Shown here piece after piece: positions 564 to 18,754 of a stretch of 37,131 nt of DNA. The notes under the pieces are model-generated. The model was not told where the DNA came from. It worked only from the letters and a program-made list of their open reading frames with translations, and ran no database searches. The first letter of the stretch is position 1. The number at the start of each line of letters is the position of its first letter. A program made the position numbers and the translations under genes. Source of the DNA: an uncultured Blautia sp. (GTDB taxonomy: Bacteria > Bacillota > Clostridia > Lachnospirales > Lachnospiraceae); contig CAKRYE010000020.1 in assembly GCA_934426285.1 (NCBI GenBank), positions 1 to 37,131 on the forward strand, given 5' to 3'.

Positions 564-1083
564 TAGTACCTCTATCTCTGTGTATAGCTAATGTTTCCTC
601 TTTGATATAGTTTCGCAGGCCAGAACTGTGAGGAACAGTTCTCTCTCGACTTCCCTCTGGTATTTATTTTGTTCATACCTTCATCAGTACTATTCGGGCC
701 TCCGACTACCTGCATTTCTTTTGCCATCCTTCTTTTGGTTGTCAGGCATACTTTCTGTTTACACACTACAGAAGAAAATGCAGGTTCTCTCCAGTTGATA
801 TATATTCCCTGTATAACATGAATAGTTCCAACCAACACCGCAGAGGTATGTAAAATCTCACCATAACGATAAATACATATGTTGTCTTCCATCCAGACCA
901 CGATGTCGACCCTCTGGTGACTTTGGGATTTCGGTGCTCAATAGCTATCCCTGTTATCTTGCTGTCTACGCTTAACCTGCAACGTTACCGCAACAGACTC
1001 AAGACTCGCTTCAAATGCTGTGGTTAACAGCTTATTTGATGGGGCTTCCACCCACCGGACTATATACCCTTAGCTGGACGCAC
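564..1083 (-). mobile_element. 5' RNA portion of the group II intron
   Basis: This 520-base stretch precedes the intron-encoded protein on the minus strand and has no convincing protein. At 1083 the minus strand begins GTGCGTCCAGCTAAGGG, which matches the conserved GUGYG 5' end of group II introns. The following sequence (GGTATATAGTCCGGTGGGTGGAAG) resembles the start of domain I. The long frame at 572-901 has no known domain and is read as a shadow of structured intron RNA. Domains V and VI would lie left of the window. The exact boundary at 1083 is an inference from the consensus. Confidence 0.65.
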
Positions 1084-2807: not shown

Positions 2808-2882
2808 TCAATATCTTTACCTTATTAACTACTATTAAGAAGTTCTTCCTTTCCACAAAATTTCAAACCTACCGAAATAAAA

Positions 2883-2950
2883 AGGTTCTTCCACGAATAT
2901 CTATATTTCATGATTTGCCAAAAGCAGAATAACCATATTTCTCAGTAATA
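2883..2950 (+). repeat. decayed ORF-fragment repeat, copy 1
   Basis: The sequence GGTTCTTCCACGAATATCTA through TTTCATGATTTGCCAAAA and AGAATAACCATATTTCTCAG is closely matched at 5889-5950. Read on the plus strand it gives VLPRISIFHDLPKAE, stop, PYFSV, aligning with the translated copies at 5854-5956 and (on the minus strand) 1084-1220. It lies in the 280-base gap between wzx and manC, which otherwise holds nothing I can name. Confidence 0.65.
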
Positions 2951-3086
2951 AGCACTACACTATTTTAAAGTTTGAACTTTATATGTGATAAAATACTACT
3001 GTCATGCTGCCCTCTATTCTTCTTATTGTTCACTCTACAATGTCTCTACGATATTATTTTCCTAGAATAAATGAGAATTACCCCTT

Positions 3087-4400: not shown

Positions 4401-4578
4401 AGTATTTTCTATCTCCTAATTATCATGCAGTATTTTGCATATTATACGCTAAGACTTCACATACCTAAAATAGGATTCATGCCTTATTAATGTGGGAAAT
4501 TTTAGTTATATATACTCTTCATAAAAATCTCACTAAACTTCCTCAAAAATCAAAAAGAAATCCTCTATACCCTAACCC

Positions 4579-4615
4579 TTGGTTTTTCCACAAGCATCCA
4601 TATTTTTTATAAAGG
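4579..4615 (+). repeat. decayed ORF-fragment repeat, copy 2 (partial)
   Basis: TTGGTTTTTCCACAAGCATCCATATTTTTTATAAA is a diverged match to the core of the copies at 2883 and 5889 (GGTTCTTCC-C-AATATC-ATATTT). Its plus-strand translation VFPQASIFFIKAK aligns with VLPQISIFHDLTK of copy 3. It lies in the 279-base gap upstream of manC. The identification is weaker than for the other copies because the match is short. Confidence 0.4.
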
Positions 4616-4679
4616 CAAAGAGTAACATGCATCAGGAATTCTCATTTTGACAATGACTTATGCCAAATTTTAATTTAAT

Positions 4680-5819
4680 TTATTCAAACAAATTAACAAA
4701 ACGATACGCAAATCCATAAGATAAACTTCGTCTTGATATTATAAACAATGCATAAAACAAAACCAAAACTATTACAATTGCTTCTTTTATTTTTCTATTT
4801 CTATAATCATCTTTAATATAGCTTTTAAAAAAATATCCCCACATTAACAACCTTGGTAAATAATAATACATTGTAAGTCTATAGGCTCCCAATATTATTA
4901 CAGGAATTATTAATACTAAACTATAAATACCTGCTAGTATAGCTATGTTTTCTCTAAAATCATTTTTTTTTCTAAAATACAACATATATAACGCAAGAAA
5001 TCCAGATAATAATATAGACCAATTTCCCAATAATGTTGGTGTCATATCTTGGCCTGACATATAATATGAATATCTTGTATTAAAAAAATATTTCCTTGCA
5101 AACAAACATATAATATATGTTACAATTAATGCAATTATCAAAACAAATACACTTTGAGCAAAATTTATCTTCCTAGTCCGCCCAATCAACCAATACATCA
5201 TAATAAAAGGAATATTCACAATTAGAGTGGTTTGAAAAAAAGTGCCAATTATTGTTAAAACAAGTGCCTTTTTAAATTTATTATTTTTCAAAGCGCCAAA
5301 AGAAAATAAAATAAAAGTACCCCCCATAGCACTTCTCATAATATTCATATCATAAAAAAACTGTGTAGATGCTAATACCAAAAAAGTCAAGAAACAATCA
5401 TTATTCCAAAATTGTTTTATAAAAAAAGTGTAACCAGCTGCAATAAAAATACTAGCAAAAAAGAAATACACAGTATAATTGTCCGTAATATGTCTAACTA
5501 TATAATTAAATAATTTATATAATGGCTCTAAATCAACATTCCACATATTATTGTAACTAATTGCAGCTTGAAAAGTTTTAACATAATAGTCTGTATCTGC
5601 TCCATAAGAAATATCTTTAAATGTATAAAGAAACACAAGCATTATATATATAAGAAAATAGTATATATTAATACTCATCTTATGTTTTCTAGTTACTACT
5701 ATAGTTTTCGTATTACTACATAATGCCTTTTTATTCAAAAGACATAACATCACTCCCACTGCTAGTATAATAATAAATGTCGCACTATCCCAATATTGAC
5801 CAAATTCAAAAAATTTCAC
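4680..5819 (-). CDS. wzy: Wzy/EpsG-like polysaccharide polymerase
   Basis: The 379-residue protein is almost entirely hydrophobic, with about ten membrane helices. The motif DISYGADTDYYVKTFQ in the first extracytoplasmic loop and the later FFYDMNIMRSAMGG segment are typical of EpsG-family polymerases. It would polymerise flipped repeat units outside the membrane. The chosen start is the GTG at 5819, preceded by GAGGAG with a nine-base spacer; an ATG six bases upstream is out of frame. It sits between manC and per in the AT-rich cassette. Polymerases diverge strongly, so the assignment rests on topology, the loop motif and the neighbourhood. The gene symbol is a role name. Confidence 0.8.
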   Translation of the reverse strand: MKFFEFGQYWDSATFIIILAVGVMLCLLNKKALCSNTKTIVVTRKHKMSINIYYFLIYIMLVFLYTFKDISYGADTDYYVKTFQAAISYNNMWNVDLEPLYKLFNYIVRHITDNYTVYFFFASIFIAAGYTFFIKQFWNNDCFLTFLVLASTQFFYDMNIMRSAMGGTFILFSFGALKNNKFKKALVLTIIGTFFQTTLIVNIPFIMMYWLIGRTRKINFAQSVFVLIIALIVTYIICLFARKYFFNTRYSYYMSGQDMTPTLLGNWSILLSGFLALYMLYFRKKNDFRENIAILAGIYSLVLIIPVIILGAYRLTMYYYLPRLLMWGYFFKSYIKDDYRNRKIKEAIVIVLVLFYALFIISRRSLSYGFAYRFVNLFE

Positions 5820-5853
5820 TTCATTTCACTCCTCATATTTAACTAATCATACA

Positions 5854-5956
5854 AAAGCACTTATTAGATTGAATATTACGATACGGCAGGTTCTTCCGCA
5901 AATATCCATATTTCATGATTTAACCAAAATAGAATACCCCTATTTCTCAGTATTTT
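5854..5956 (+). repeat. decayed ORF-fragment repeat, copy 3 (longest intergenic copy)
   Basis: The plus strand reads KALIRLNITIRQVLPQISIF and continues HDLTKIEYPYFSVF, aligning with MKELVMNITMRQILPYFSAL on the minus strand at 1084-1220. At DNA level, GAATATTACGATACGGCAGGTTCTTCCG differs from that fragment at only a few positions. It is a remnant of the same unidentified gene in the opposite orientation to the operon. Confidence 0.65.
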
Positions 5957-6177
5957 CTGCTTTTCATTAAACTTCAAAACGAGAAAATGCGAAATAATTA
6001 AAGAACTCCGGAATAATCACCAAACTTTGAAGTGTAAACTGATGATATATATATCACAAAGTTTCAATTGTCTACTTGTTCGCAAAATACAAACAACCAA
6101 GATTTCTAAATCGGTTTCCAACTGATAGAACGACTTAAATTCTATAAATAAAATAGTAGCAATTCAAACATTTAAAA
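5957..6177. other. AT-rich intergenic stretch with nested dyad symmetry
   Basis: No coding sequence is visible between the repeat copy and the end of per. At 6022-6064 there is an inverted repeat AAACTTTG...CAAAGTTT enclosing a perfect 14-base palindrome TGATATATATATCA (6043-6056). It could be the end of a lost insertion sequence, a weak terminator or a protein-binding site. Nothing in the sequence decides between these. Confidence 0.35.
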
Positions 6178-7281
6178 TCACTCTGTTATTGCCTTTCTCA
6201 AACAATCAACTATATATTTCACATGATTTTCTGTAATCTGTGAATGGGTTGGAAGATTAATTCCCCTTTTACTAATTTGTTCTGCATTTTTGCAATTTAA
6301 CATAGGATTATAATATGGCGGCATTACATGCATTGGATAAAAAACAGGTCTCATTTCGATATTTTGTTTTTCCATATAGTCCATAACTTCATCCCTACTC
6401 TTTTTTATTTTATTTGAAAGTACAATCGTATACATCCAATATGAATGTACAGCATTTTTAGGTATTCTTTGTTCTACAACCCCCTCTACACCCTTTAGGT
6501 ATTTTTTATAAAGGCTTGCCACCCTAATTCTCTCACTCATATGCCACTCAATTTTTTCTAACTGTCCTAAACCAACTGCAGCTTGCATATTTGTCATTCT
6601 ATAATTGTATGCAAGTTCAAGGTGCCAATATTTCTTTTTTAAATCAACTCCCTGCGATCTTAAAAACTTCATTCTTTTATACAATTTTTCGTCATTAGTT
6701 ACAAGCATACCACCTTCTCCAGAAGTGATAATTTTATTCCCAAAAAAGCTAAAAGAACCAATTGTACCAATAGAACCAACTCGTTTTTCATTCCACATTG
6801 CTCCATGAGCTTCAGCAGCATCTTCAATAACTGGTATTTTATACTTTTTAGAAATTTTCATTATTTCTGTCATATTTGCAGGTAAACCGTAAAGATGAAC
6901 CGGTATTATTGCTTTAGTTTTTTTCGTAATAGCCCTTTCAATTTCAGAAGGGTCAATGTTCCAAGTATCAAATTCACTATCAACAAAAACAGGTATTGCT
7001 CCACAATATCTTACCGCATTAGCGGTTGCTATGTAAGTTAATGTAGGCATAATAACTTCATCTCCTGGTCCTATTCCCAATGCAAGAAGTGCTAGATGTA
7101 ACGTCACTGTACCATTACTACATGCTAATGCATATTTTACTCCACAAAATTCCGCAAATTTTTTTTGAAATTCATCAATAAAGCGTCCATTAGCAGATAC
7201 CCAACCTGTGTCAATACATTCATTAAGATATTTCTTTTCATTGCCATTAAATATCGGCATTGCAATAGATATTCTTTCCAT
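6178..7281 (-). CDS. per: GDP-perosamine synthase (DegT/DnrJ/EryC1/StrS aminotransferase)
   Basis: This PLP-dependent sugar aminotransferase (367 residues from MERISIAMP) aligns along its length with Per/RfbE enzymes as I remember them: CSNGTVTLHLALLALGI, GDEVIMPTLTYIA, IPVHLYGLP, SFSFFGNKIITSGEGGM, YNYRMTN and RPVFYPMHVMPP. The Lys of FFGNK is the PLP-binding residue. It would aminate GDP-4-keto-6-deoxymannose, the Gmd product, to GDP-perosamine. The start at 7281 is preferred because AGGAG lies ten bases upstream. An ATG at 7299 would overlap gmd and lacks a ribosome binding site. A related use of UDP-4-keto-6-deoxy-GlcNAc made by the CapD homologue cannot be excluded, but gmd lies immediately upstream. 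Confidence 0.9.
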   Translation of the reverse strand: MERISIAMPIFNGNEKKYLNECIDTGWVSANGRFIDEFQKKFAEFCGVKYALACSNGTVTLHLALLALGIGPGDEVIMPTLTYIATANAVRYCGAIPVFVDSEFDTWNIDPSEIERAITKKTKAIIPVHLYGLPANMTEIMKISKKYKIPVIEDAAEAHGAMWNEKRVGSIGTIGSFSFFGNKIITSGEGGMLVTNDEKLYKRMKFLRSQGVDLKKKYWHLELAYNYRMTNMQAAVGLGQLEKIEWHMSERIRVASLYKKYLKGVEGVVEQRIPKNAVHSYWMYTIVLSNKIKKSRDEVMDYMEKQNIEMRPVFYPMHVMPPYYNPMLNCKNAEQISKRGINLPTHSQITENHVKYIVDCLRKAITE

Positions 7282-7285
7282 TTTG

Positions 7286-8329
7286 CTAAATCTCCTCATA
7301 AACGTTTTTTTCTTTTTTTGCTAATTCTCTATCATGTTTTGCCATAATATTAACAAGCTCTTCATAACTTGTTTCCTGAGGATTCCATCCAAGAATATTC
7401 TTTGCCTTTGTAGGATCTCCCAAAAGATTATCTACATCAGTTGGACGAAACCAATGAGGATTTACGCAAACTAACATTTTTCCAGTTTTTACATCATATC
7501 CTTTCTCATTTATACCAGTACCTTTCCAATATATTTTTATGCCATTTACTGCAAATGCTTTTTCTGTAAAGTCTCTAACAGTATGTTGTTCACCAGTTGC
7601 TATAACAAAATCATCCGGTGTGTTTTGTTGCAAAATCAACCACATGCATTTAACATAATCCTTAGCATAACCCCAATCCCGAAGGGAATTTAAATTTCCT
7701 AATTCTAAATGATCCTGAAGTCCCTCCGCAATACGTCCAGCAGCTAAAGTAATTTTTCTTGTCACAAAATTTTCACCACGCCGCTCAGATTCATGATTAA
7801 AAAGAATCCCATTAGCTGCAAACATATTATATGCCTTTCTGTATTCCTTTATTATCCAGAATCCATATTGCTTAGCAATTGCATACGGACTATATGGATG
7901 AAACGGGGTAGTTTCTTTTTGTGGAATTTCTTCTACTTTCCCATAAAGTTCCGAAGTAGAAGCTTGATATATTTTCGTTTTATTACATAAACCAAGAATA
8001 CGGCATGACTCTAAAATGCGCAAAACACCAAGTGCATCAACATCACCAGAATACTCCGGTACATCAAAAGATACCTGTACATGACTCTGTGCTGCTAGAT
8101 TATAAATTTCATTCGGTTGAACGATTGAAATAATACGCACCAGAGAACTACTATCAGCTAAATCTCCTTCATGCAAAATAATTTTATTCATGATATGATC
8201 AATTCTAAAAGTGTTTGGACTAGATGATCGTCGTACAATACCATGCACTTCATACCCTTTTTCTAATAAAAATTCTGCTAAATATGAACCATCCTGTCCT
8301 GTTATTCCCGTAATTAATGCCTTTTTCAT
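7286..8329 (-). CDS. gmd: GDP-mannose 4,6-dehydratase
   Basis: The 347-residue extended SDR starts [20 protein letters not shown], the Gmd Rossmann signature. It contains the catalytic SELYG segment, the [11 protein letters not shown]xxxK motif and [19 protein letters not shown], which is characteristic of GDP-mannose dehydratases. It converts GDP-mannose to GDP-4-keto-6-deoxymannose, the substrate of the following per gene, four bases away. The start at 8329 is chosen because AAAGGAG lies just upstream; an ATG eight codons earlier would overlap the upstream glycosyltransferase. No GDP-fucose synthase (WcaG) is present in the window, which points to perosamine rather than fucose. Confidence 0.96.
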
Positions 8330-8339
8330 TTTTTCTCCT

Positions 8340-9500
8340 TTACTTAGTGCCAATTATTAAGTCAAGTAATTTATCCATATCTTTGTTTTGTCTAAAGTAC
8401 AATTGCTCTAATCTGTCAAAAATTTTTCTTGTATCTATTTTATTTTCAACTGCTTGCATAATTCTATTTTCCATTTCCATAACATCATATGGATTACACC
8501 AATATACAGTATCTTTGTATATCTCAGGCAATGAACAAACCGAAGAAACCACGCACGTTTTTCCATACTTCATTGCTTCCATTGGAACATTTCCAAATCC
8601 CTCATTAAGTGTCGGATAAAAAAGAATATCACATTTTCTATATGCTTTTTCCAATTCCTCACTTGATACATATTCATAAAAAATAAAATGTTCTTTATTT
8701 TTAATAGAATCACGTATTCTTTTTGGTGCATTTCCATACACTCTCACTGAATAACCACTTAAATATTGTTTAGAGAACAATTCATCAATAGCTTTTAATC
8801 CACGGTAACTGTTTTTAATCCATCTATCCGCACTAATGAGCATAATATATTTATCTTCATTATCATATTGATTGCAAAAGCTAGTAATTTTCTGAGTAAT
8901 CGGATAAAAAACTTCAATTTTTTTATTTTTTATTATGTTAGGATAATTAATTCGTATCGAATATGCAGAATGAATTGAATCTGTTATTATTACATCAAAA
9001 TTATTGATAGTATTTTCATATACTGAATAATATTTTTCAAAAAGTGGCTTTTTTAATATTTTTTTTACTATTTCTTTCAATAATCCTTTTCCACGATAAT
9101 ACTTTAGAAGATATTTATCTGTTTGTTTTTCCACTGAACGCAAACCATGTAAAGTTCCTATACTAATAACATTTTGTGGAAAATTAAATTTATCATAATG
9201 ATAGGGCAAGCCAGAAAAAAATCTTACATCTCCATTTTGAGCGAACTCATTTACCCAATTAATAATTTCTGATAAACTGCAGACATTTTTTATACAAAAA
9301 TTTTTCTCTTTTATTGTACGTAATATCCAATCATCTAAAAATTTATTTGTTTCGTAACAAACAATTATCATTTCATTTGCTTTATTATAATATTTATCAG
9401 AAAATGCTCTAAATATAGTCTTAATATATTCTCCTCCACCATGATATATCGTTTTTCCAATTGGCTGAGCACTATATAAATCAATAACAATATATTTCAT
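8340..9500 (-). CDS. glycosyltransferase family 4
   Basis: The 386-residue protein has the GT-B C-terminal signature of GT4 enzymes: [15 protein letters not shown], then [21 protein letters not shown] (the E-x7-E pair) and [19 protein letters not shown]. It should transfer a sugar from a nucleotide donor to the lipid-linked repeat unit on the cytoplasmic face. Donor and linkage cannot be read from sequence; GDP-mannose or GDP-perosamine are reasonable given the neighbours. An AGGTGG ribosome binding site precedes the ATG. The gene ends ten bases before gmd begins, so the two are likely translated from one transcript. Confidence 0.88.
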
Positions 9501-9561
9501 AATACCACCTGTGTTTTCAATAAACTAATCTAATATTTTTGTTCATAACCTCTCTATATCT

Positions 9562-9590
9562 AATAAAAACAGTCATTTATATACGACTGT
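9562..9590 (-). terminator. possible weak intrinsic terminator inside the polysaccharide operon
   Basis: On the minus strand ACAGTC and GACTGT form a 6-bp stem with a 10-base loop, followed by TTTTTATT. It lies in the 293-base non-coding gap (9501-9793) between the two GT4 genes, which otherwise shows nothing beyond AT-rich sequence. An internal terminator is the kind of signal a LoaP antiterminator would suppress. The stem is short, so this is tentative. Confidence 0.4.
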
Positions 9591-9793
9591 CATTACTCAA
9601 TTTTGAGTTGATATCCTTAACTTTTTATTTAATAATTATCAGTATATAAAGTAATTTATACATAGCATTACACAATACAATTTTCCTTAACGTATATGCA
9701 AAAGTACTCTTTAAAATAAATCAAATAATAATATCAAATCAACTAAAACCAAATCATTTTCTCGAACTTCAAAATATTCAATTCTACCCGATT

Positions 9794-10981
9794 CTAATAT
9801 GACAACTCTTTAAGTTTTTTATAAAACGCATTTCTTCTTTTTTGCAAAATAGTATTTTCATATTCAAATGCTTTACTATAATTTATTCTACTCATTTTTT
9901 CTAATTCTCTAGGGTTCTTTTTCAATTCAAGAATACGTTTAGCAAACCCATCAACATCAAATGGATCAAACATATTTTCTCTAGTCAAAAGCTCTGGAAT
10001 ACCATTTACAGGTGTTGATATACACGGAAGTCCTGTCGCCATAGCCTCAATTAAAACTCTAGGAAGACCCTCCGCTTGTGACGGAAATAGAAACAAATCA
10101 CTCTTTAATAATTCAGAACGCAAATCTTTCTTATTTGAAAACAATCCTAGAAATCTAACATTATCACTTATATTCAAATCTTTCGCCATGTTTTCATAAT
10201 ATGGTCTTCTGTCTCCATCTCCAATACACTTTAAAGTAACATCCACATTCATGCTTTTTAATTTAGCAATAACATTAAGCAATGTAGTATGCCCTTTTAT
10301 GTCAGAATTAATTGCGCTTGCAATATGTATAATATTTATTGGCCTTTTTTCAATATTTGAATAAACTCTAGGTTTACCAAAAAAATCTTTATCTAGCTTT
10401 ATAGATGAGTAATATGAATCAAAATGTTTTTTATCTGTACCATACTTTATTGAATATGAAGGATACTCTTTTTCTAAAAAATTTTGTGTAACATACGATA
10501 CTCCATTAGCAATTAAGCATTCTTTCTTAAGTTTCCGTGTTAAAACATATGTTGCTAATTTATTACTCTTATATGCATCTCTGGGATCTACAATTACTTC
10601 TATTGCATAAGGACGATTTGTTTTTTTAAACTCATCTAATAACATAAAAGTAGGCAAAGATGGCAGCCTAAATATTCCACAATTTTCCTTTTTAATCACT
10701 CTCCTAATTATCTTTTTTAAGCGAAAATAATTTATAGCATAAGCTTTAGCCCCACGAATAAATGGTAATTCTGTAAAAGTAATTCCAGGACCATCTGCCT
10801 TAATATAAATTGATTTGTCAATGTTCTCCATTTGCTGTACTCTTGCAACAACATTAACTTTATCAAAAACTTCTAAATATCTCTTCCAAAAATCATATCC
10901 ATGAACTGCAGTTCTACACCAATATGTATTTGTATTTTTCTCTTTAACAATATGAGCATCAGACATTACTAATACTTCCAT
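9794..10981 (-). CDS. glycosyltransferase family 4
   Basis: The 395-residue protein has a GT-B fold layout with an N-terminal acceptor domain and a C-terminal donor-binding domain. The latter carries NIIHIASAINSDIKGHTTLL, LKCIGDGDRRPYYE and SQAEGLPRVLIEAMATGLP with the E-x7-E motif, then PVNGIPELL. It is a second cytoplasmic enzyme of repeat-unit assembly. The donor is unknown. A GAGGTGA sequence precedes the ATG. It follows the acetyltransferase gene by 24 bases, and a long AT-rich gap with a possible terminator separates it from the next glycosyltransferase gene. Confidence 0.88.
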   Translation of the reverse strand: MEVLVMSDAHIVKEKNTNTYWCRTAVHGYDFWKRYLEVFDKVNVVARVQQMENIDKSIYIKADGPGITFTELPFIRGAKAYAINYFRLKKIIRRVIKKENCGIFRLPSLPTFMLLDEFKKTNRPYAIEVIVDPRDAYKSNKLATYVLTRKLKKECLIANGVSYVTQNFLEKEYPSYSIKYGTDKKHFDSYYSSIKLDKDFFGKPRVYSNIEKRPINIIHIASAINSDIKGHTTLLNVIAKLKSMNVDVTLKCIGDGDRRPYYENMAKDLNISDNVRFLGLFSNKKDLRSELLKSDLFLFPSQAEGLPRVLIEAMATGLPCISTPVNGIPELLTRENMFDPFDVDGFAKRILELKKNPRELEKMSRINYSKAFEYENTILQKRRNAFYKKLKELSY

Positions 10982-11005
10982 AATTCACCTCAATAATTCA
11001 CTTCC

Positions 11006-11584
11006 TTAATTCATTTTCACCCATTTGCTATGAGCACCATCCCACTGTTTAACAATTCTGTTACAACCTACCACCATTGAATTTTCCGGAATTTTTTTAC
11101 TAACAACACTATTTGCTCCTATAATGCAACCATCGCCAATTTCAGTTCCAGCTAAAATTACAACATTTTCTCCTATCCAAACGCGATTTCCGATTATTAC
11201 CGTACCTTCAATTAGATTCCTATCATTCGGATTAGTTTTGGGTGAATCCTGAGTTTCACCAATATATTGTCCATGATTTGTATCACTTATAAAACATTTA
11301 GATGCAATTAACACATTTTCACCTATTTTTACAAATCTATGTGCTACGATATGCACCATATCTCCCATTTCACAATTATCACCTATATACAAACTTTTTC
11401 TTTTTCCATTTAAATCCCATCTGCAAAACCTTCCTGTAGTAAGATTTCTACCACCACTAATTGATTTTTTTCCTCGAATATATATAGGTCTCCTTACAAA
11501 TCTCGATTCTCGCATTGTAATTTTAGTCATAAACAAATAATACGCATTTTTTATAACTTCTGACGCAGAATATATGTTTTTCAT
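11006..11584 (-). CDS. left-handed beta-helix (hexapeptide-repeat) acetyltransferase
   Basis: The 192-residue protein has hexapeptide repeats (IGDNCEMGDMVHI, IGENVLIASKCFI, IGNRVWIGENVVILAGTEIG, IGANSVV) and the SDTNHG loop seen in WcaF/WbbJ-like acetyl-CoA-dependent enzymes. It may N-acetylate perosamine or O-acetylate another sugar of the repeat unit; sequence alone does not decide. The ATG at 11584 overlaps the stop of the upstream epimerase gene as ATGA and has AAGGA nine bases upstream. An alternative ATG at 11593 is only a base from that AAGGA and is less likely. Its position directly after the epimerase indicates translational coupling. Confidence 0.82.
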   Translation of the reverse strand: MKNIYSASEVIKNAYYLFMTKITMRESRFVRRPIYIRGKKSISGGRNLTTGRFCRWDLNGKRKSLYIGDNCEMGDMVHIVAHRFVKIGENVLIASKCFISDTNHGQYIGETQDSPKTNPNDRNLIEGTVIIGNRVWIGENVVILAGTEIGDGCIIGANSVVSKKIPENSMVVGCNRIVKQWDGAHSKWVKMN

Positions 11585-12420
11585 ATCAAGCATTCCTTCA
11601 TTTTTTCGATCATTTGTATCTTACAATCATCTCCCCAAATTGCTTTTGAATCATAAGGTCTATCTGGAAAAGCACCATAATTCAGTTTCATATCAAATCC
11701 ATTTTCTTTTATAAATCGTTCTACTCTATCAGAAATTTTTTCAGGACGACCACAACAAATATTTATAATTCCATTAATTTCAGATTGTTCCACAGTATCC
11801 GCAACATATTTACAAAAAAGATCATAATCAAGAAAATCAAATTGATTTACTCCCCATGTAAATGGAAATACTTTTTGTCCCTTGTTTGCAGCTTGTACTA
11901 TCTTTGAAAAAACAGAACATCCATCTTCTGTATTTCCAACAATATAAAAAGCACGAAGCCATTGAAATTCAATATTTTTATTTTGACACTCCAATTCAAT
12001 AATTTGCCTTAAAGTGTTTTTACTTATGCCATACAAACTTTGCGGATTGCAGGGGGTGCTTTCATTAATACTACCTTCATAAAAACCTATCTCATGCATA
12101 CTACCCATAATAGCAATTTTTTTCACTCCATCACTAATCATTCTTGATAAAAATCCCACATGCTTAGAAAGATCATTTATATGCCTTTTTGACCCATGTA
12201 CAAATCCGTCTCTCCATGCCATATGTAATACAACTTCTGGTTTCCCATAATATTCATATGGATTTTCTAACGAAAATATATCTCCACATATAATTTCAGC
12301 TCTTTTATCAATAAAATTATCTTTTAAGTCTGTAGCAACAACATTTTCACCATCATCTAACAATCTTTTAACAACACCCTTGCCTAAATATCCATTTGCA
12401 CCTGTAACTAAAATTTTCAT
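11581..12420 (-). CDS. NAD-dependent epimerase/dehydratase (extended SDR)
   Basis: The 279-residue protein begins MKILVTGANGYLGKGVVKRL, the GxxGxxG Rossmann motif, and has an IMGSMHEIGFYE segment followed by YGISK, the YxxxK catalytic pair. It belongs to the nucleotide-sugar epimerase/dehydratase family but is shorter than GalE, and I cannot name its substrate. GGGAG precedes the ATG at a good distance. It lies 17 bases after the fusion glycosyltransferase gene and overlaps the next gene, so it is part of the same translational chain. Confidence 0.82.
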   Translation of the reverse strand: MKILVTGANGYLGKGVVKRLLDDGENVVATDLKDNFIDKRAEIICGDIFSLENPYEYYGKPEVVLHMAWRDGFVHGSKRHINDLSKHVGFLSRMISDGVKKIAIMGSMHEIGFYEGSINESTPCNPQSLYGISKNTLRQIIELECQNKNIEFQWLRAFYIVGNTEDGCSVFSKIVQAANKGQKVFPFTWGVNQFDFLDYDLFCKYVADTVEQSEINGIINICCGRPEKISDRVERFIKENGFDMKLNYGAFPDRPYDSKAIWGDDCKIQMIEKMKECLI

Positions 12421-12437: not shown

Positions 12438-14306
12438 TCAGCTTAATACTTCTAAAATCCAGTTATAAAGCGAATATTTTGTATATATCCGAGTTTCCAA
12501 TGGTATATATTGTAATTCTATAAATTCTTTATCAATTTGGATATCATTTCTATCAATTACTTTAATATTATTTGGATTATAAAAATCATATTTTAAAATT
12601 GATTTATTTGTCGTAATTAACTTTTTATTCATCCCTATCATTTCAATTGTTCTTATTGTTAATCCTGTTTGTTTGGGATGCTGAATATCCAAAACAATTT
12701 TTGATTTATCAATAATTTCAGCAACCTCTTCACTACTCATTTTTTCAAATTTGAAATCATTAATATTTGTATGTAAAAATTCCTTTTTGGTCGCTTTATA
12801 AAAATAATAAACAAATTTGCTTTGTAAATAGCAAAAGAAATAACTATTCAACTTCTCCCGATGAAAAATGTCACGTACTTGGTTAATAATTGTAATTCGA
12901 TCTGAATGAATCGTTCCAATAAAGCTTACATCATATTTTAATTTGTCTTTTTTTTCGGTTTTGCAAAATTCATCCGAATAAAATAACGGTCTGAACTTAA
13001 GTTCTTTATATTTTTTACAATCTTCCATGTCAAAAGAATGTAAGGTATCAAAATACTTAAACTTCTTAGTCACTCCTGGTATATTATCTATAGAATCCCA
13101 TAAATATAGGCAAAGTTTTGCATTAGGGTACTTCTCTTTAAGCTTTTTAAGAATGCTTTTAGGAGTCATATCACATTTGATAATCAAAATATAATCATAA
13201 TTCTTTTCTAGATTATCATTAATAATTTTTTCATAGTAATTCAGACTCTTTCTTAAAAAAATATTAGGACTAATTTTTAAAAGGGCTCTACTCATCGCAT
13301 TTGTTACAGAACGAACATCGTACATATCAACAAACGCCCCCATCTCTTCCATCTTTCTAACAATTTTATATTCATATCCAAAAAAAGCTGGTGAAAAAAA
13401 GAGTATCTTTTTGCAAGCAATATCATTAACCTGTTTATTGTTAATATTATATTGATTCATTTTCATTTCTCTTATTCCGCCTTCAATCACATTAGCATCT
13501 CCTCCAAGAACACCTAAACTGTTAAGAAATACTTTACTATCTATTTTAAAATCAATATTTCTACAATATTCACCATCAAGCTTTGCTTTTTCTGGAATCT
13601 CTAATTCATCCCTTCCATTAATCTGTGCCCATCCAGTCAGCCCTGGTTTTACATCATTCGCGCCATATTTATCACGTTCAGCAGTAAGTACATCCTGATT
13701 CCAAAGCCCTGGTCTTGGCCCAATAACACTCATATTCCCAATAAAGATATCCCAAATTTGTGGCAATTCATCTAAACTATGAGATCGAATAAACTTTCCA
13801 ACTTTTGTAATATATTGTTCTGGATTATCAAGCATATGGGTTGGCACATCATGCGGTGTGCTCATTTTCATACTTCTGAATTTATGCAATTTGAAATACT
13901 TTTTATTTTGACCAAGGCGTTTCTGAGTAAAAAATATTGGTCCCGGATCATCAATAAAAATAGCAATAGAAATCCCAATAAATACTGGTGACAGTACCAC
14001 CAACCCACAAAAAGATAACACTACATCTAAAAACCTTTTTACATATTTTGCATAAAAGCTAGGATGATAATCACTATCACCAATTGCTTCAAGATGCCCC
14101 CTCACTCCGTCAGCATTTTCAGCATCATTTTCATCTTTAACAAAAATAACTTTTTTCCCCTCCATCGGATTCTGTTCAGAAGGTTCATTCCGATATACGG
14201 AATCACCTTTCTTTACTTTTGCCCATATCTTCATTCCTGTAAACACAGTCCCCAACATCACTGCTGTAGCTCCTGCAATCTTTTTTATCTTTCGATTTCC
14301 AGACAT
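12438..14306 (-). CDS. phosphoglycosyl transferase fused to an RfaS/CgeB-like glycosyltransferase domain
   Basis: Residues 1-95 form a short N-terminal segment with one hydrophobic stretch. Residues about 85-280 are a monotopic bacterial sugar transferase: KRFLDVVLSFCGLVVLSP, DDPGPIFFTQKRLGQ, FKLHKFRSMK, the catalytic Asp-Glu in SLDELPQIWDIF, and NMSVIGPRPG. That enzyme loads the first sugar phosphate onto undecaprenyl phosphate. Such proteins normally end near GGIREM. Here the frame continues for about 330 residues beginning KKILFFSPAFFGYEYKIVRK, with a GT-B-like C-terminal half (SFIGTIHSDR, VLDIQHPKQTGLTIRTIEMIG) recalling LPS core RfaS/CgeB-like proteins. One protein may both prime the lipid and add a sugar. 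No in-frame start with a ribosome binding site is obvious at the junction. Confidence 0.82.
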   Translation of the reverse strand: MSGNRKIKKIAGATAVMLGTVFTGMKIWAKVKKGDSVYRNEPSEQNPMEGKKVIFVKDENDAENADGVRGHLEAIGDSDYHPSFYAKYVKRFLDVVLSFCGLVVLSPVFIGISIAIFIDDPGPIFFTQKRLGQNKKYFKLHKFRSMKMSTPHDVPTHMLDNPEQYITKVGKFIRSHSLDELPQIWDIFIGNMSVIGPRPGLWNQDVLTAERDKYGANDVKPGLTGWAQINGRDELEIPEKAKLDGEYCRNIDFKIDSKVFLNSLGVLGGDANVIEGGIREMKMNQYNINNKQVNDIACKKILFFSPAFFGYEYKIVRKMEEMGAFVDMYDVRSVTNAMSRALLKISPNIFLRKSLNYYEKIINDNLEKNYDYILIIKCDMTPKSILKKLKEKYPNAKLCLYLWDSIDNIPGVTKKFKYFDTLHSFDMEDCKKYKELKFRPLFYSDEFCKTEKKDKLKYDVSFIGTIHSDRITIINQVRDIFHREKLNSYFFCYLQSKFVYYFYKATKKEFLHTNINDFKFEKMSSEEVAEIIDKSKIVLDIQHPKQTGLTIRTIEMIGMNKKLITTNKSILKYDFYNPNNIKVIDRNDIQIDKEFIELQYIPLETRIYTKYSLYNWILEVLS

Positions 14307-14402: not shown

Positions 14403-16466
14403 TTATTTGTTTACCGCTTTCTCATAAAGCTCCCTATACGTCTCCCCATGCAACCTCAAATCCTCTTCCGCCGCATGATAAGTCGGCACGATCTCTTCCA
14501 CATACCTCCTGATCCCCGGATCATTCCCATAAGCCACCACAGCCAGTCTCTCCAATTGTCGCAGAAACTCATCCGTATCAAACGGAATCGGCTTCCCAAT
14601 ATGGATCAATTCATTCTCCGTCTTAGTCAGTCCCTCTTCCGCCATCAACTTTTCTTCATACAGCTTCTCCCCTGGCCTTAACCCGGTATATTCCACCTTA
14701 ATATCCACATCCGGTGTCATCCCCGACATCTTAATCAGGTTCCGTGCCAGTGTATCAATCTTCACCGGCGCTCCCATATCCAGCACAAAGATTTCTCCGC
14801 CCTTTGCATAAGTTCCCGCCTGAAGCACCAGACTCACAGCCTCCGGAATGGTCATAAAGTACCGGATAATATCCGGATGGGTAACGGTTACAGGGCCGCC
14901 CTTTGCGATCTGTTTCTTAAACAGCGGGATTACAGACCCGTTGCTTCCCAGTACATTTCCAAACCGCACTGCCACAAACTCAGTTTTAAGCTTCCGTTCC
15001 CCTTTTTCCTCAGGAAACTCCCTAGTAACTGCCGCTTCCTTCAGTACTTCCTCACTGTCCTCATAGTGGCTTCCCAGTAGCGGAAGCTTATCTATCTGTC
15101 CTGTTCTGCTGATTTTATCCATAGTCTGGATAACCATCTCGCAGAGACGCTTGCTGGCTCCCATAATGTTGGTAGGATTCACAGCCTTATCTGTACTGAT
15201 CAGCACAAAACGCTGACATCCATTTTTCAGGGCTGCATGTGCTGTCTTATAAGTTCCCATCACATTGTTCTTAATAGCTTCACAGGGGCTGGTCTCCATA
15301 AGGGGTACATGCTTATGTGCAGCTGCATGATAAACAATGTCCGGTTTATAGGTTTCAAATACATCATTGATCTTTCTGGTATCACGGACAGAACCGATCA
15401 GTACCACCAGATCCAGGTTCGGGTATTTGGAGCGGAGTTCCTGCTCAATGTCGTATGCATTGTTCTCATATACATCGAAGATCACCAGCCTCCTCGGTGC
15501 ATGAGCTGCGATCTGGCGGCAGAGCTCGCTTCCGATAGATCCGCCTCCACCGGTCACCAGGATAGTTTTTCCGCTGATATAACGGAAAATCTCATCCATG
15601 TTTACCTTGATAGGGTCTCTTCCCAGAAGATCCTCCACTGCCACATCCTTCATCTTGCTGAGAGATACTTCTCCTGTGACAAACTGATAGACACCTGGCA
15701 GGATCTTCATCTCGCATTTGGTCTCTTTGCAGATATTTAAGATGTCCCTTTTCTCTGCAGCACTTGCACTTGGAATAGCAAGAAGGATCTGGTCGATCTT
15801 GTATTTCTTTGCATTTAAAAGGATCTCATCCCTGCCTCCTACAATAGGTACGCTCTCCATATAGCGGCCCCATTTGTTGGGATTGTCGTCAATAATGCAG
15901 TAGACCTTTCCCTTTGGTTCTTTTGCACGTTCAATATCACGGAGAATAATCTGCCCTGCCTGGCCTGCACCGATCAGCATGATATGATGCAGCGGCCCTT
16001 CCTCTTCTTTCTGTCTCCGTGTCCTCTCCAGAAGGATAAACCGATAAGAAAAACGGATCCCTACGATCAGGCAGAACTGGATGATGGTTCCAAATAAGTA
16101 ATAGGACATTGGCATCTGCTGTATGGCAAGGGTGATCCCAACTGCCTGAAACAGAAATGTAATCACTGTAGAGATGCCAACCCTGATAAGCTCACTGTAG
16201 CTTGCAAAGCGCCATACACTGTTGTACAGGCGCAGCATCCAGAACACAAAAACAGAGAATACCGTATACCATGGTGTAAACTTCAGATAGGCAGACAAAT
16301 ATTCTCCGGGTATTGCTGAATATGTACAATCAAAACGAAACCACAGACCAAGAAAATAGGCTGCATTTACAGCGATCACATCATAAATGACCAGATAAAG
16401 GGAAATCACCTGCCAATGCTCCAGTTTTCTTCTCTTACAATTTTTCTTTTGATTCATAAATGTCAT
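14403..16466 (-). CDS. membrane nucleotide-sugar 4,6-dehydratase (CapD/PglF family)
   Basis: The 687-residue protein has four N-terminal membrane helices, a CoA-binding-like Rossmann domain (MLIGAGQAGQIILRDI) and a catalytic SDR domain from about residue 300 (ILVTGGGGSIGSELCRQIA, YHAAAHKHVPLMETSP, STDKAVNPTNIMGASKR). In this family Met replaces the usual catalytic Tyr before Lys, as seen here. It should convert UDP-GlcNAc to a UDP-4-keto-6-deoxy sugar at the membrane, probably for the first sugar of the repeat unit. The gene is much GC-richer than the following cassette, so it is likely conserved backbone. The ATG at 16466 overlaps the stop of a four-codon mini-ORF and lacks its own strong ribosome binding site. 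Confidence 0.9.
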   Translation of the reverse strand: MTFMNQKKNCKRRKLEHWQVISLYLVIYDVIAVNAAYFLGLWFRFDCTYSAIPGEYLSAYLKFTPWYTVFSVFVFWMLRLYNSVWRFASYSELIRVGISTVITFLFQAVGITLAIQQMPMSYYLFGTIIQFCLIVGIRFSYRFILLERTRRQKEEEGPLHHIMLIGAGQAGQIILRDIERAKEPKGKVYCIIDDNPNKWGRYMESVPIVGGRDEILLNAKKYKIDQILLAIPSASAAEKRDILNICKETKCEMKILPGVYQFVTGEVSLSKMKDVAVEDLLGRDPIKVNMDEIFRYISGKTILVTGGGGSIGSELCRQIAAHAPRRLVIFDVYENNAYDIEQELRSKYPNLDLVVLIGSVRDTRKINDVFETYKPDIVYHAAAHKHVPLMETSPCEAIKNNVMGTYKTAHAALKNGCQRFVLISTDKAVNPTNIMGASKRLCEMVIQTMDKISRTGQIDKLPLLGSHYEDSEEVLKEAAVTREFPEEKGERKLKTEFVAVRFGNVLGSNGSVIPLFKKQIAKGGPVTVTHPDIIRYFMTIPEAVSLVLQAGTYAKGGEIFVLDMGAPVKIDTLARNLIKMSGMTPDVDIKVEYTGLRPGEKLYEEKLMAEEGLTKTENELIHIGKPIPFDTDEFLRQLERLAVVAYGNDPGIRRYVEEIVPTYHAAEEDLRLHGETYRELYEKAVNK

Positions 16467-16507
16467 TTCTTAATCATACGGACAGCTTCACTCTGCCCTT
16501 TCCTCCT
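16463..16507 (-). other. chain of two overlapping mini-ORFs leading into capD
   Basis: A perfect AGGAGG (16502-16507) lies too far from the capD ATG to serve it, but it sits ten bases before GTG AAG CTG TCC GTA TGA (16474-16491). That stop overlaps ATG ATT AAG AAA TGA (16463-16477), whose stop in turn overlaps the capD ATG at 16464-16466. The arrangement would let ribosomes loaded at the strong site reinitiate stepwise into capD. It is a sequence observation; the peptides are probably not functional themselves. Confidence 0.35.
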
Positions 16508-16557
16508 AAATAAATCTTTTTCCTTCTTCAATTAAAAATTAAAATAATCTCTTGTTA

Positions 16558-17052
16558 TTAATCCTTAGTCAAAATCTCCAGCCCGCCATACATCTGAAGA
16601 TATCCCTCTCCTGCCGGCACTTCCAACCTTGCCAGTCTTTTATGCCTGTCAATTTTCCGTATCAGTTCTTCCTTGCCCTGCAACGGCCCCTGGGTAACAC
16701 AGGTCTGCCCCTGTCGGATATGCCCTTTTGACAGTGACATATGCTTTTCCTCCCCAAAGAGCTGCGCAAACAGTCCTTTCTGTTCCGAGGACAAGCGAAT
16801 CATACGGCTGTCAGGACATTTATCATGAAGTTCCTGTTCCAAAGTGTCCGGATCTTCGCTTTCCAGAAAGATAATATCCGGAAATGCAATCCCCTGTTCC
16901 ACATGCCACTGCCCCTGATACCGTTTCATCCGGTCATAGGTAGGCACGAAGGCGTCCTCCAATGCACGGGCAGAGAGGCTTTGTCTGCAGATTCTGGCAA
17001 ATTCTGTCGGGTTTTGTTCTCCACAGTCGCATAAGTACCAGATGACGATCAC
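16558..17052 (-). CDS. loaP: LoaP-type NusG paralogue, processive antiterminator
   Basis: The 164-residue protein has a NusG N-terminal domain (VIWYLCDCGEQNPTEFARIC, ARALEDAFVPTYDRMKRYQG, FPDIIFLESEDPDTLEQEL) and a short KOW-like end (GKEELIRKIDRHKRLARLEV). LoaP proteins are encoded at the head of long polysaccharide and antibiotic operons in Firmicutes, bind a leader RNA hairpin and let RNA polymerase read through terminators. Its place here, first in an approximately 16-kb minus-strand operon, fits exactly. The only plausible start is the GTG at 17052, with AAGGA directly abutting it, an unusually short spacing. It is transcribed from the promoter at 17142-17170, whose leader contains the 29-base palindrome at 17076-17104. 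Confidence 0.85.
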   Translation of the reverse strand: MIVIWYLCDCGEQNPTEFARICRQSLSARALEDAFVPTYDRMKRYQGQWHVEQGIAFPDIIFLESEDPDTLEQELHDKCPDSRMIRLSSEQKGLFAQLFGEEKHMSLSKGHIRQGQTCVTQGPLQGKEELIRKIDRHKRLARLEVPAGEGYLQMYGGLEILTKD

Positions 17053-17075
17053 TCCTTTTTCGCAGATTTCGACAG

Positions 17076-17104
17076 GATTCGTAGAGTATTTTACTCTACG
17101 AATC
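17076..17104. repeat. left inverted recombination site (palindrome)
   Basis: GATTCGTAGAGTA-TTT-TACTCTACGAATC is a perfect palindrome with 13-base arms and a 3-base centre. Bases 17077-17102 match the reverse complement of 18604-18629 at 25 of 26 positions, so the two sites are inverted with respect to each other. Paired arms around a short asymmetric centre resemble a tyrosine recombinase core site. The site lies in the transcribed leader of loaP, so the RNA would also fold into a strong hairpin there. Confidence 0.8.
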
Positions 17105-17141
17105 TGGTTTCAGACTTTTCCAGTCCCTTTCAACTCTCTTT

Positions 17142-17170
17142 ATTTTATATACAGTAGCACAATTTGTCAA
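17142..17170 (-). promoter_or_regulatory. sigma-A promoter driving loaP and the polysaccharide operon
   Basis: On the minus strand there is a perfect TTGACA (17165-17170), a 17-base spacer and TAAAAT (17142-17147). Transcription would start near 17135 and run through the left inverted repeat into loaP. It lies inside the segment bounded by the inverted sites, so inversion would disconnect it from the operon and point it at the end of the diguanylate cyclase gene. Confidence 0.75.
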
Positions 17171-17396
17171 TATTTCTGTGACGAATCTGTGAAATTCTTC
17201 TGTTTATGACAAAGTTTTTTAACAAACAAAGGGAGTTTTTATATGGTTTTTAATCTATCTATACAAAAATCATGACCAAAGTGGGCTGACTTGGGTGCTA
17301 TTTGCCGTTGCAATTATGGTCAGACAGCGGTCGGGCAACTATATTTAGACTTGTCGGACAGTTATGTTCCTATATTTTATCGAAAGGAGTTACATC
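17171..17396 (+). other. upstream region of the recombinase gene
   Basis: No protein of convincing size is present. A ten-codon frame with a good ribosome binding site (AAAGGGAG, then ATG at 17243, stop at 17273-17275, MVFNLSIQKS) could be a leader peptide. TTGTCG (N16) TATTTT at about 17351-17378 is a weak candidate promoter for the recombinase. Neither is strongly supported. Confidence 0.3.
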
Positions 17397-18539
17397 ATGT
17401 CAAGAAAAGGAGAAAATATTTACAAACGTAAAGATGGCCGCTGGGAGGGCCGTTATATCAAAGCCAGGACTCCCCAGGGAAAAGCCGTCTACGGCTCTGT
17501 ATATGCTTCCACCTATAATGAGGTGCGCAAAAAAAGAAGTCAGGCAGTGGCAGACCTTGTTACAGATCCTTCGGTGCCGGATATAGTTCCTCTGCAGCCC
17601 CAGTCTTTTGCCAAGGTTTCCGGAGATTGGCTGGTATCCATACAGCCAAAAATCAAAGAATCTTCCTATATGAAGTATACTAATCTGCTCAATTCCTACC
17701 TGCTGCCTGAATTATCCCAGATCCTTATCTCAGAACTTACCTCCAATAAAATTCAAAAATGCTGTGACCATCTTCTCACCCAGGGCGGAGCTGCCAGAGA
17801 AGGGCTTTCCGCCAAAACCGTATCTGATATTCTGTCCCTGCTGAGAAATATTCTGCGCTTTGCCCAGGTGCAGGGTATGAGGCCGGCTGCCACAGGAAGG
17901 GAAATCGCAATCCGCCAGATTTCTCCGGATACGGTTGTACTGTCACGGTCTTCCCAGGAGATTCTGTGCAGATATCTTTATTCTCATATGAATGAGCGCA
18001 ATTTGGGAATTCTGATCTGTCTTTTTACCGGACTGCGTATTGGTGAGATCTGTGCGCTGCAGTGGGAGGATATTTCCCTGACAGAGGGTTTTATCTATGT
18101 CCATCAGACTATGCAGCGGCTTCAGACCAATGCTTCCGGGAACACCAAAACTACGGTAAGGATCTCTACTCCCAAAAGCAAGTGCTCTATACGGACCATT
18201 CCTCTGCCGGAAAGTCTGGGGCAGCTGATCTCCAGGGAATTTCCGGACAGGCAGGGGTTTGTGTTAGCCTGCGGAGAGGAGAAATATGTGGAACCCAGGG
18301 TCATGCAGAATTATTTCCGTTATGTACAGGAGCAGTGTGGTCTGGAGCCCGTAAATTTCCACGCGCTGCGCCATACCTTTGCTACCTGCTGTGTGGAGGT
18401 TGGATTTGATGTAAAAAGCTTAAGTGAGATTCTGGGACATGCCAATGTAAATATTACCATGAATCGTTATGTTCATCCTTCCATGGAATTAAAACACCAG
18501 AACATGCAGAAGCTCTCCGGCCTTTTTGCCGTCAATTAA
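17397..18539 (+). CDS. tyrosine recombinase, probable invertase of the flanking segment
   Basis: The 380-residue protein has an AP2-like N-terminal DNA-binding segment (RKGENIYKRKDGRWEGRY), a SAM-like core-binding domain and a phage-integrase catalytic domain. The catalytic set is visible: Arg in TGLRIGEICALQW, His-x-x-Arg in HALRHTFATCC, His in LGHANVNIT and Tyr in MNRYVHP. The start at 17397 has AAAGGAG seven bases upstream; the frame is open 11 codons further up but without a ribosome binding site. No excisionase, relaxase or cargo accompanies it. It is enclosed by two inverted palindromic sites and points away from loaP. This fits a self-contained DNA inversion switch better than an integrative element. 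Confidence 0.9.
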   Translation: MSRKGENIYKRKDGRWEGRYIKARTPQGKAVYGSVYASTYNEVRKKRSQAVADLVTDPSVPDIVPLQPQSFAKVSGDWLVSIQPKIKESSYMKYTNLLNSYLLPELSQILISELTSNKIQKCCDHLLTQGGAAREGLSAKTVSDILSLLRNILRFAQVQGMRPAATGREIAIRQISPDTVVLSRSSQEILCRYLYSHMNERNLGILICLFTGLRIGEICALQWEDISLTEGFIYVHQTMQRLQTNASGNTKTTVRISTPKSKCSIRTIPLPESLGQLISREFPDRQGFVLACGEEKYVEPRVMQNYFRYVQEQCGLEPVNFHALRHTFATCCVEVGFDVKSLSEILGHANVNITMNRYVHPSMELKHQNMQKLSGLFAVN

Positions 18540-18560
18540 TTTTGGTCAAAAGCCGTTAAA

Positions 18561-18605
18561 AGCCCCCGGAATTCCCTGTTTATGGGAGTCCCGGGGGCCT
18601 TTTTT
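18561..18605 (+). terminator. intrinsic terminator of the recombinase gene
   Basis: AGCCCCCGGAATTCCC and GGGAGTCCCGGGGGCCT form a long GC-rich stem, with TTTTTT at 18600-18605. It begins 22 bases after the recombinase stop and its T-run touches the right inverted site. Because it lies inside the putative invertible segment, flipping would place it between the recombinase and loaP. Confidence 0.85.
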
Positions 18606-18629
18606 CGTAGAGTAAAATACTCCACGAAT
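18604..18629. repeat. right inverted recombination site
   Basis: TTCGTAGAGTA-AAA-TACTCCACGAA is the reverse complement of the left site, with one mismatch in 26 bases. The central AAA here versus TTT on the left gives the sites direction and shows they are inverted. Confidence 0.8.
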
Positions 18630-18660
18630 TTTCAGCACATTTTGGACTATATTCTAATAA

Positions 18661-18708
18661 AAGAAACAGCAGTTTACAGGCTATCTTGTCTGTTCACTAC
18701 TGTTTCTT
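18661..18708. terminator. hairpin terminator at the end of the cyclase operon
   Basis: AAGAAACAGCAGT and ACTACTGTTTCTT pair at 12 of 13 positions. On the minus strand the hairpin is followed by TTTCTTTTATT, as expected for an intrinsic terminator downstream of the diguanylate cyclase. The plus side also has T-rich sequence, so it may act in both directions. Confidence 0.6.
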
Positions 18709-18754
18709 CTTTTGTGTATTTTTATTCAATTTTTTCTTTGGTTTGTTTCTATGT

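What the first reader, a model, noticed from the sequence alone, without database searches (positions are those of the whole stretch)
17076..18629. Self-encoded invertible promoter controlling LoaP and the whole capsule operon
Two 26-base sites in inverted orientation (25/26 identical, central TTT against AAA) enclose a tyrosine recombinase gene. A TTGACA-N17-TAAAAT promoter inside the segment points out through the left site into loaP. Flipping would remove the promoter from about 16 kb of polysaccharide genes. The switch would act on the antiterminator gene at the head of the operon, so one inversion would change both initiation and elongation. The sites and promoter are seen directly. Inversion is inferred from the general behaviour of recombinase-associated invertons.
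Basis: partly seen in the sequence, partly recalled or inferred. Interest (0 to 1): 0.92.

Follow-up and report, generated by a model that had tools for sequence, protein, structure and literature searches.

The report
Self-flipping capsule gene switch
A gut bacterium carries a piece of DNA that holds both a promoter and the enzyme that appears to flip it, placed so that flipping would turn a whole surface-sugar gene cluster on or off, and related gut bacteria carry the same switch in both positions.

Summary
Observation confirmed. Two 26-bp sites (17077-17102, 18604-18629; 25/26) flank a tyrosine recombinase, with TTGACA-N17-TAAAAT pointing out through the left site into a LoaP-like gene heading about 16 kb of polysaccharide genes. 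Relatives argue strongly that the segment inverts. (1) In two genomes of the Blautia genus (L106, L107) it lies in opposite orientation between collinear flanks. (2) LoaP proteins P0122 and P0143 begin with the translated inverted junction. (3) In 41 of 41 strict site pairs around related recombinases the central 3 nt are inverted-identical (permutation mean 2.1), though they differ between loci. (4) The outward promoter is conserved across 64 cassettes (p 4e-11). Such site pairs, 12 of them 190-400-bp mini-switches without a recombinase inside, precede all 16 genes of one LoaP clade, up to four per genome. So the window is the self-encoded form of a broader Lachnospiraceae switch, resembling Bacteroides UpxY invertible promoters with other parts. 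Inversion in this strain and its effect on capsule expression are inferred. New variant of a known kind.

The parts
17077..17102 (.). left recombination site, palindromic TTCGTAGAGTA-TTT-TACTCTACGAA plus one base; lies in the loaP leader
18604..18629 (.). right recombination site, inverted copy, 25/26 identical, centre AAA
17103..18603 (.). segment proposed to invert, 1501 bp
   Evidence: inversion inferred from relatives
17142..17170 (-). outward promoter TTGACA-N17-TAAAAT, 39 nt inside the left site, reading into loaP (ON in this assembly)
17397..18539 (+). tyrosine recombinase, 380 aa (ORF can be read from 17364); R214, H322, R325, H348, Y358 invariant among 18 aligned rows
18562..18605 (+). 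intrinsic terminator of the recombinase gene, directly inside the right site; it would face loaP after inversion
   Evidence: the consensus scan did not list it
16558..17043 (-). loaP-like antiterminator gene; probable start codon ATC at 17043 (an in-frame GTG lies at 17052)
18656..18713 (.). strong two-way hairpin outside the right site that could end the promoter's transcript in the flipped state and the GGDEF gene's transcript
14403..16466 (-). polysaccharide biosynthesis protein (PF02719), first gene after loaP
12438..14306 (-). initiating sugar transferase fused to a WaaS/CpsH-type glycosyltransferase
1251..12420 (-). rest of the polysaccharide genes: epimerase, hexapeptide transferase, two glycosyltransferases, GDP-mannose dehydratase, DegT aminotransferase, EpsG, sugar nucleotidyltransferase, and a protein without a Pfam match (1251-2807)

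Best explanation
This is a self-contained phase-variation switch. The recombinase encoded inside the segment recognises the palindromic site at each end and exchanges strands across a core of about 7 bp, which inverts the 1.5-kb segment. In the orientation seen (ON) the segment's promoter reads through the left site into loaP and on into the polysaccharide operon. In the flipped state (OFF) the recombinase gene's own terminator faces loaP, and the promoter points at a hairpin on the far side. The outcome would be a mixed population in which LoaP and capsule are made only in ON cells. The anatomy, the conserved promoter, the terminator sequences and the opposite orientations among relatives are shown. 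Inversion by this recombinase, the ON/OFF effect and the operon-wide range are inferred.
For: Opposite orientation between collinear flanks in L106 and L107. P0122 matches the predicted flipped junction at 23 of 24 residues upstream of loaP, and P0143 shares it. Central 3 nt inverted-identical in 41 of 41 strict cassette pairs and 12 of 12 mini-switch pairs. 0 mismatches at site positions 10-16 within 41 pairs, although positions 11-15 are among the most variable between loci. Outward promoter: 55 of 64 score at least 10 against 13 of 64 inward, p 4e-11. A terminator-like hairpin lies beside the right site in W, L106, L107 and L108 (read by eye; W folded). Among 115 full-length relatives in the capped list, 19 sit on contigs only 200-400 nt longer than the gene and 1 on a contig 0-200 nt longer, as if assemblies break at the cassette ends (indirect, no control family was run).
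Against: No reads or second assembly of this strain. P0122 (91% identical to the window's LoaP) and P0143 come from related strains, not this one. 30 of 94 distinct related recombinase genes had no flanking repeat by the looser test and 33 of 88 had neither site by the strict one; some flanks are cut short. L107 has an internally deleted recombinase and a stop inside loaP, and G461 keeps only the sites, so some copies are dead. The switch is patchy: DNA matches at E 1e-30 in 4 of 64 genus genomes and 6 of 397 family genomes. No transcription data. The UNCG hairpin was not found.
Confidence: 0.87

Rival explanations
1. The segment is a small mobile element with terminal inverted repeats and its own integrase that happened to land upstream of loaP; the opposite orientations are separate insertions.
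For: The closest solved structures by sequence are chains named Int protein, 6en0 and 6emy. The remnant in G461 is 93-97% identical in its pieces while core genes are 78-81%, so the locus seems to have moved between species.
Against: Flanks on both sides are collinear in L106 and L107. All 16 loaP genes of one clade have a site ahead of them (L106's diverged pair found by repeat search), and 12 of these are pairs with no recombinase inside. Spacers match within a pair and differ between loci.
Confidence: 0.05
2. The switch once worked but is frozen in this strain, in the ON state.
For: Decayed copies exist: L107 has an internally deleted recombinase and a stop inside loaP, G461 lost loaP, promoter and recombinase, and database recombinase P0037 loses the family sequence partway, as after a frameshift.
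Against: In the window the recombinase is full length with the invariant residues of the family and the sites are 25/26.
Confidence: 0.12
3. The palindrome is mainly an RNA hairpin in the loaP leader (an antitermination or stability element), not a recombination site.
For: The leader folds into a 13-bp hairpin at the site; the leader's z-score is -3.3.
Against: The second copy lies beyond the recombinase terminator. The loop differs between loci but matches the partner site in 41 of 41 strict pairs. Related sites flank recombinases in loci where no LoaP was found.
Confidence: 0.03

Closest known systems
Bacteroides invertible promoters of capsule loci headed by UpxY antiterminators
   Same: An invertible promoter sits ahead of a NusG-type antiterminator gene linked to capsule production. 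PMC11892184 (passages, and sections 6 and 8 in full) reports UpxY genes enriched as regulatable genes near Bacteroidota invertons.
   Different: Other phylum, LoaP instead of UpxY, another site sequence (the Bacteroides sites were not compared here), a sigma-A type promoter, and here the recombinase lies inside the segment. That B. fragilis uses the distant serine recombinase Mpi is recalled.
Inverton group 139 with invertase group 35 in Clostridia (PMC11892184)
   Same: 33 invertons, 32 from Clostridia, linked to a tyrosine recombinase group; one listed example has 26-bp repeats and a 205-bp interior, the geometry of the mini-switches here. Orientation shifts were seen across culture passages. 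Probably the same site family (inference).
   Different: Its motif is not in the text I saw and the supplement could not be read. LoaP is not named in the passages seen, nor are cassettes that hold the recombinase.
LoaP of Bacillus velezensis (PMC12691694, passages read)
   Same: A NusG paralogue linked to long operons. All 15 rows scanned, the window's included, match NCBIfam LoaP (6 also match UpxY and 6 NusG).
   Different: The window protein scores below the family cut-off and its clade is separate from the LoaPs of the sample that have no site (Bacillus LoaP was not in that tree). No UNCG hairpin was found.
Salmonella Hin flagellar switch (recalled)
   Same: The recombinase gene lies inside the inverted segment with an outward promoter.
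   Different: Hin is a serine recombinase that uses an enhancer and controls flagellin.
Eggerthella lenta capsule inversions (PMC13174815, passages read)
   Same: Inversion changes the position of capsule genes relative to loaP.
   Different: Megabase-scale inversions with a 16-bp repeat at the flanks and no recombinase found next to the breakpoints.

Membership tests
invertible promoter (inverton) | inverted repeat pair around a promoter that points at a gene outside | tested here: met
invertible promoter (inverton) | both orientations exist in nature | tested here: met
   related loci and proteins; not this strain
invertible promoter (inverton) | inversion seen by reads or PCR in one population | not testable with these tools
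   no genome or reads held
tyrosine recombinase | Phage_integrase domain with conserved R, H, R, H, Y | tested here: met
   (invariant R214, H322, R325, H348, Y358 in 18 rows; that these are the catalytic residues is recalled)
LoaP antiterminator | NCBIfam NF033641 score at or above its cut-off of 125 | tested here: not met
   76.4 bits; it is still the only NCBIfam family matched at E 0.001
LoaP antiterminator | gene at the head of a long biosynthetic operon | tested here: met
   that the genes form one transcript is inferred from their order
LoaP antiterminator | UNCG hairpin in the target leader | tested here: not met
   0 found with a stem of at least 5 pairs on the operon strand, 0.24 expected; other geometries not tried
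Bacteroides UpxY/Mpi system | UpxY protein and serine recombinase Mpi | tested here: not met
   the window protein matches NF033641 only; the recombinase is of tyrosine type
mobile element with terminal repeats | multiple unrelated insertion sites and target duplication | tested here: inconclusive
   collinear flanks in L106/L107; near-identical remnant in G461 with different surroundings; target duplications not looked for

The most novel reading that the evidence does not exclude
A whole subfamily of LoaP antiterminators in Lachnospiraceae is dedicated to phase variation. Every sampled gene of the clade has the same kind of palindromic recombination site ahead of it. Several such capsule operons sit in one genome, each with its own 3-base spacer, which may act as an address that lets one recombinase family flip each promoter without joining loci to each other. 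About half of these genes appear to start at AUC or AUU, which would keep LoaP low and make the switch sharp. The window carries the form that encodes its own recombinase.
Probability: 0.5. Interest if true: 0.85.

Novelty: new variant of a known kind. Interest (0 to 1): 0.74.

Why it matters
Phase-variable capsule in Bacteroides is tied to phage resistance and gut colonisation and rests on invertible promoters ahead of UpxY (general knowledge, and passages of PMC11892184 and PMC13174815). If the same design, promoter inversion at the gene of a NusG-type antiterminator that heads a capsule operon, arose with other parts in Lachnospiraceae, that is convergent evolution of a two-level switch in two major gut groups. 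The palindromic site gives a handle to find these switches in any assembly, and loci in both orientations make it directly testable whether LoaP drives capsule operons of commensal Clostridia.

Tried and rejected
The plasmid collection had no match to 16500-20300 in near mode. A UNCG hairpin search was negative. The promoter taken alone is not beyond chance. The GTG at 17052 is doubted as the start because it abuts the ribosome-binding site, while L107 and L108 have ATG where the window has ATC. The loaP starts of L106 and L107 were read by eye, because the script left them unresolved. Different spacers at the loci of one genome could be chance and were not tested. Papers: one search found 0 papers with both LoaP and invertible promoter; one search found 1 with LoaP and phase variation (the E. 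lenta preprint); searches found 0; some searches gave listings with nothing on LoaP under an invertible promoter, most seen as titles and abstract starts only. The library is open access; subscription papers are mostly missing.

Full report
Observation. The window holds two 26-nt inverted sites at 17077-17102 and 18604-18629, 25 of 26 identical, 1501 nt apart. No other copy with up to 3 mismatches exists in the window, and shuffles give none. Each site is a near-perfect palindrome, TTCGTAGAGTA-NNN-TACTCTACGAA, so in essence the central TTT/AAA gives direction. Between them lie a full-length tyrosine recombinase on the + strand (Phage_integrase E 3e-25), an outward promoter TTGACA-N17-TAAAAT on the - strand and the recombinase's terminator next to the right site (fold z -4.2). 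To the left is a LoaP-like gene (NF033641, 76.4 bits; cut-off 125) followed by polysaccharide genes down to about 1251. Core genes are 78-82% identical to the best genomes held in the genus of G001, the genome of a Blautia glucerasea record, so the source is probably a Blautia or a near neighbour; no own genome is held.

Does it invert? Among the 64 genomes held for that genus, 4 had DNA matches to the switch at E 1e-30. L107 (G423) has the window's orientation, L106 (G462) and L108 (G413) the opposite, and L105 (G461) is a remnant that keeps both sites but has lost loaP, promoter and recombinase. L106 and L107 align collinearly on both flanks (71% on the loaP side; 69% over 144 nt, E 1.8e-14, on the far side), while the segment between the sites aligns in reverse. 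This is what one inversion at the sites would leave. For L108 only the loaP side was aligned collinearly. L107 itself is decayed: its recombinase is internally deleted and its loaP holds a stop. L106's sites have diverged from the motif (none at 6 mismatches) but are a visible repeat pair.

A second line comes from the protein database. Flipping the window's own segment in a script predicts that loaP becomes readable from MGVPGAFFRRVKYSTNPVEICEKG. Protein P0122 (188 aa, a cluster of 795 member sequences) begins MGVLGAFFRRVKYSTNPVEICEKG, 23 of 24 identical, and P0143 begins MEFLGAFFRRVKYSTNPVEICEKG. These N-termini read as the terminator end plus the site, so loaP in those strains lies next to the recombinase's far end. 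How many of the 795 members share this start is not known, and their DNA was not seen.

A third line is evolution of the sites. Of 94 distinct related recombinase genes in the fetched loci, 64 had a flanking inverted repeat by the looser test. With a strict motif, of 88 with enough flank 41 had both sites, 14 had one and 33 neither; shuffled flanks gave 3 hits in 880. In all 41 pairs (the window's included) the central 3 nt match in inverted orientation, against a permutation mean of 2.1 and a maximum of 10 in 2000, with 24 different spacers between loci. Site positions 10-16 show no within-pair mismatch in 41 pairs, although positions 11-15 are among the most variable between loci; 74 of 77 within-pair mismatches fall outside positions 9-17. 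A core of about 7 bp that must match its partner but may drift between loci is the expected mark of strand exchange by a tyrosine recombinase (general knowledge). The cassettes are related, so they are not fully independent. Among 115 full-length relatives from the capped list, 19 lie on contigs 200-400 nt longer than the gene and only 1 on a contig 0-200 nt longer; 54 cassettes with sites exceed the gene by 278-460 nt (5th to 95th percentile). This fits assemblies that break at the sites; it is indirect, and no control family was run.

Promoter. In 64 distinct cassettes the best sigma-A type match just inside the 5' site points outward with a mean score of 11.2, against 9.1 inward and 9.1 in shuffles; 55 against 13 score at least 10; Wilcoxon p 4e-11 and 1e-11. 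The distance to the site is mostly 20-50 nt. Neighbours of these cassettes are varied. Of 43 right-hand neighbours passed to Pfam (the longer ones), 4 match NusG, 4 signal peptidase S26, 2 LRR surface proteins, 2 LytTR regulators, 1 SpaA and 1 Wzz; 29 left-hand ones gave a mixed set. Some of these ORFs are probably not genes.

LoaP. Nine distinct loci have a LoaP-like gene beside a cassette that holds the recombinase: 3 in the window's orientation (window, L026, L107) and 6 the other way (L019, L054, L083, L098, L106, L108), judged by gene direction. L016 (L177) has the recombinase outside its site pair and L029 no repeat found. I then searched 397 family genomes with a LoaP profile, at most 8 candidates scored per genome (41 genomes with a match, 71 places), and fetched 31 of those 71 places, nearly all from the top of the list, and 9 of the 18 places. 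In 12 of these 40 loci a pair of the sites lies directly upstream of loaP, with 191-396 nt between them and no recombinase inside; 28 of 40 have none within 260 nt. All 12 pairs have inverted-identical spacers. The better promoter match points to loaP in 3 (L167, L170, L172), away in 6 (L168, L169, L171, L173, L174, L175) and is unclear in 3 (L166, L177, L185). One genome, G343, has four such loci with four different spacers. A recombinase of the same broad family sits near L170, L175 and L177. In a tree of 50 LoaP-like proteins the window protein and 15 other site-linked ones form one clade (support 100/100); all 16 of its members have sites, while 29 of the other 34 have none and 5 have sites. 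The profile was built partly from proteins whose annotated N-termini look like the translated site, so the sample leans towards this clade. Downstream genes are of polysaccharide type: 12 initiating sugar transferases and 7 DegT aminotransferases among 59 proteins from 15 loci.

How it most likely works. ON: promoter, site hairpin, loaP, operon. OFF: recombinase terminator facing loaP, promoter facing a hairpin at 18656-18713 (z -5.3 on the + strand). The recombinase gene flips together with its own upstream region, so it should be expressed in either state and the segment can flip back (inference). That LoaP then helps polymerase through the operon is inferred from Bacillus LoaP (PMC12691694, passages); the UNCG hairpin needed there was not found here, so this divergent LoaP may use another signal.

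What is known. UpxY genes behind invertible promoters in Bacteroidota are established, and the Clostridia inverton group 139 with its tyrosine recombinase may be the same site family (PMC11892184, passages, sections 6 and 8). LoaP with megabase inversions is reported in Eggerthella lenta (PMC13174815, passages). No paper in the open library holds both LoaP and invertible promoter, and the other searches listed none that joins the two. I therefore call it a new variant of a known kind.

Noticed in passing
window 17041-17043; L166, L168, L170, L171, L173, L174, L177, L185: In the site-linked LoaP clade 9 of 16 genes have ATC or ATT where the others have ATG (L171 less sure, as its next codon is not TGG), shortly after a ribosome-binding-like stretch; 0 of 24 resolved genes among the 28 fetched ones without a site do, 4 being unresolved (Fisher p 4e-5, relatedness not corrected). 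They look like genuine near-cognate start codons.
   Followed up: partly
proteins P0147, P0153, P0159, P0173, P0174, P0191, P0195, P0209, P0212, P0217: Database LoaP proteins begin with (F)RRVxYST-like residues just before the conserved start, which look like the recombination site translated (as in L166 and L172): annotated N-termini are probably wrong and hint at a site upstream of many loaP genes. Their DNA was not seen.
   Followed up: partly
L168-L173, L175, L177, L185: A second, weaker NusG-type gene follows loaP in these nine mini-switch loci (8 of 59 downstream proteins match Pfam NusG), recalling the upxY-upxZ pair in layout (recalled); none is seen after loaP in the window.
   Followed up: no
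L105 (G461): Remnant of the switch 93-97% identical to the window in its pieces while core genes are 78-81%: the locus seems to have moved between species.
   Followed up: partly
G343 contig C67, L223: A contig begins just before another site with yet another spacer, in sequence that looks like the inside of a mini-switch, as if the assembly broke there.
   Followed up: no
window 177-1048: Group II intron RNA end (RF02005, 824-1048) with a truncated maturase reading frame at the far end of the operon.
   Followed up: no
window 17403-17374: A second TTGACA-N18-TAAAAT match on the - strand overlaps the recombinase start and also points to loaP.
   Followed up: no
L089, 504-528: An IMG/VR record carries the same palindromic site with another spacer upstream of a related recombinase.
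   Followed up: partly
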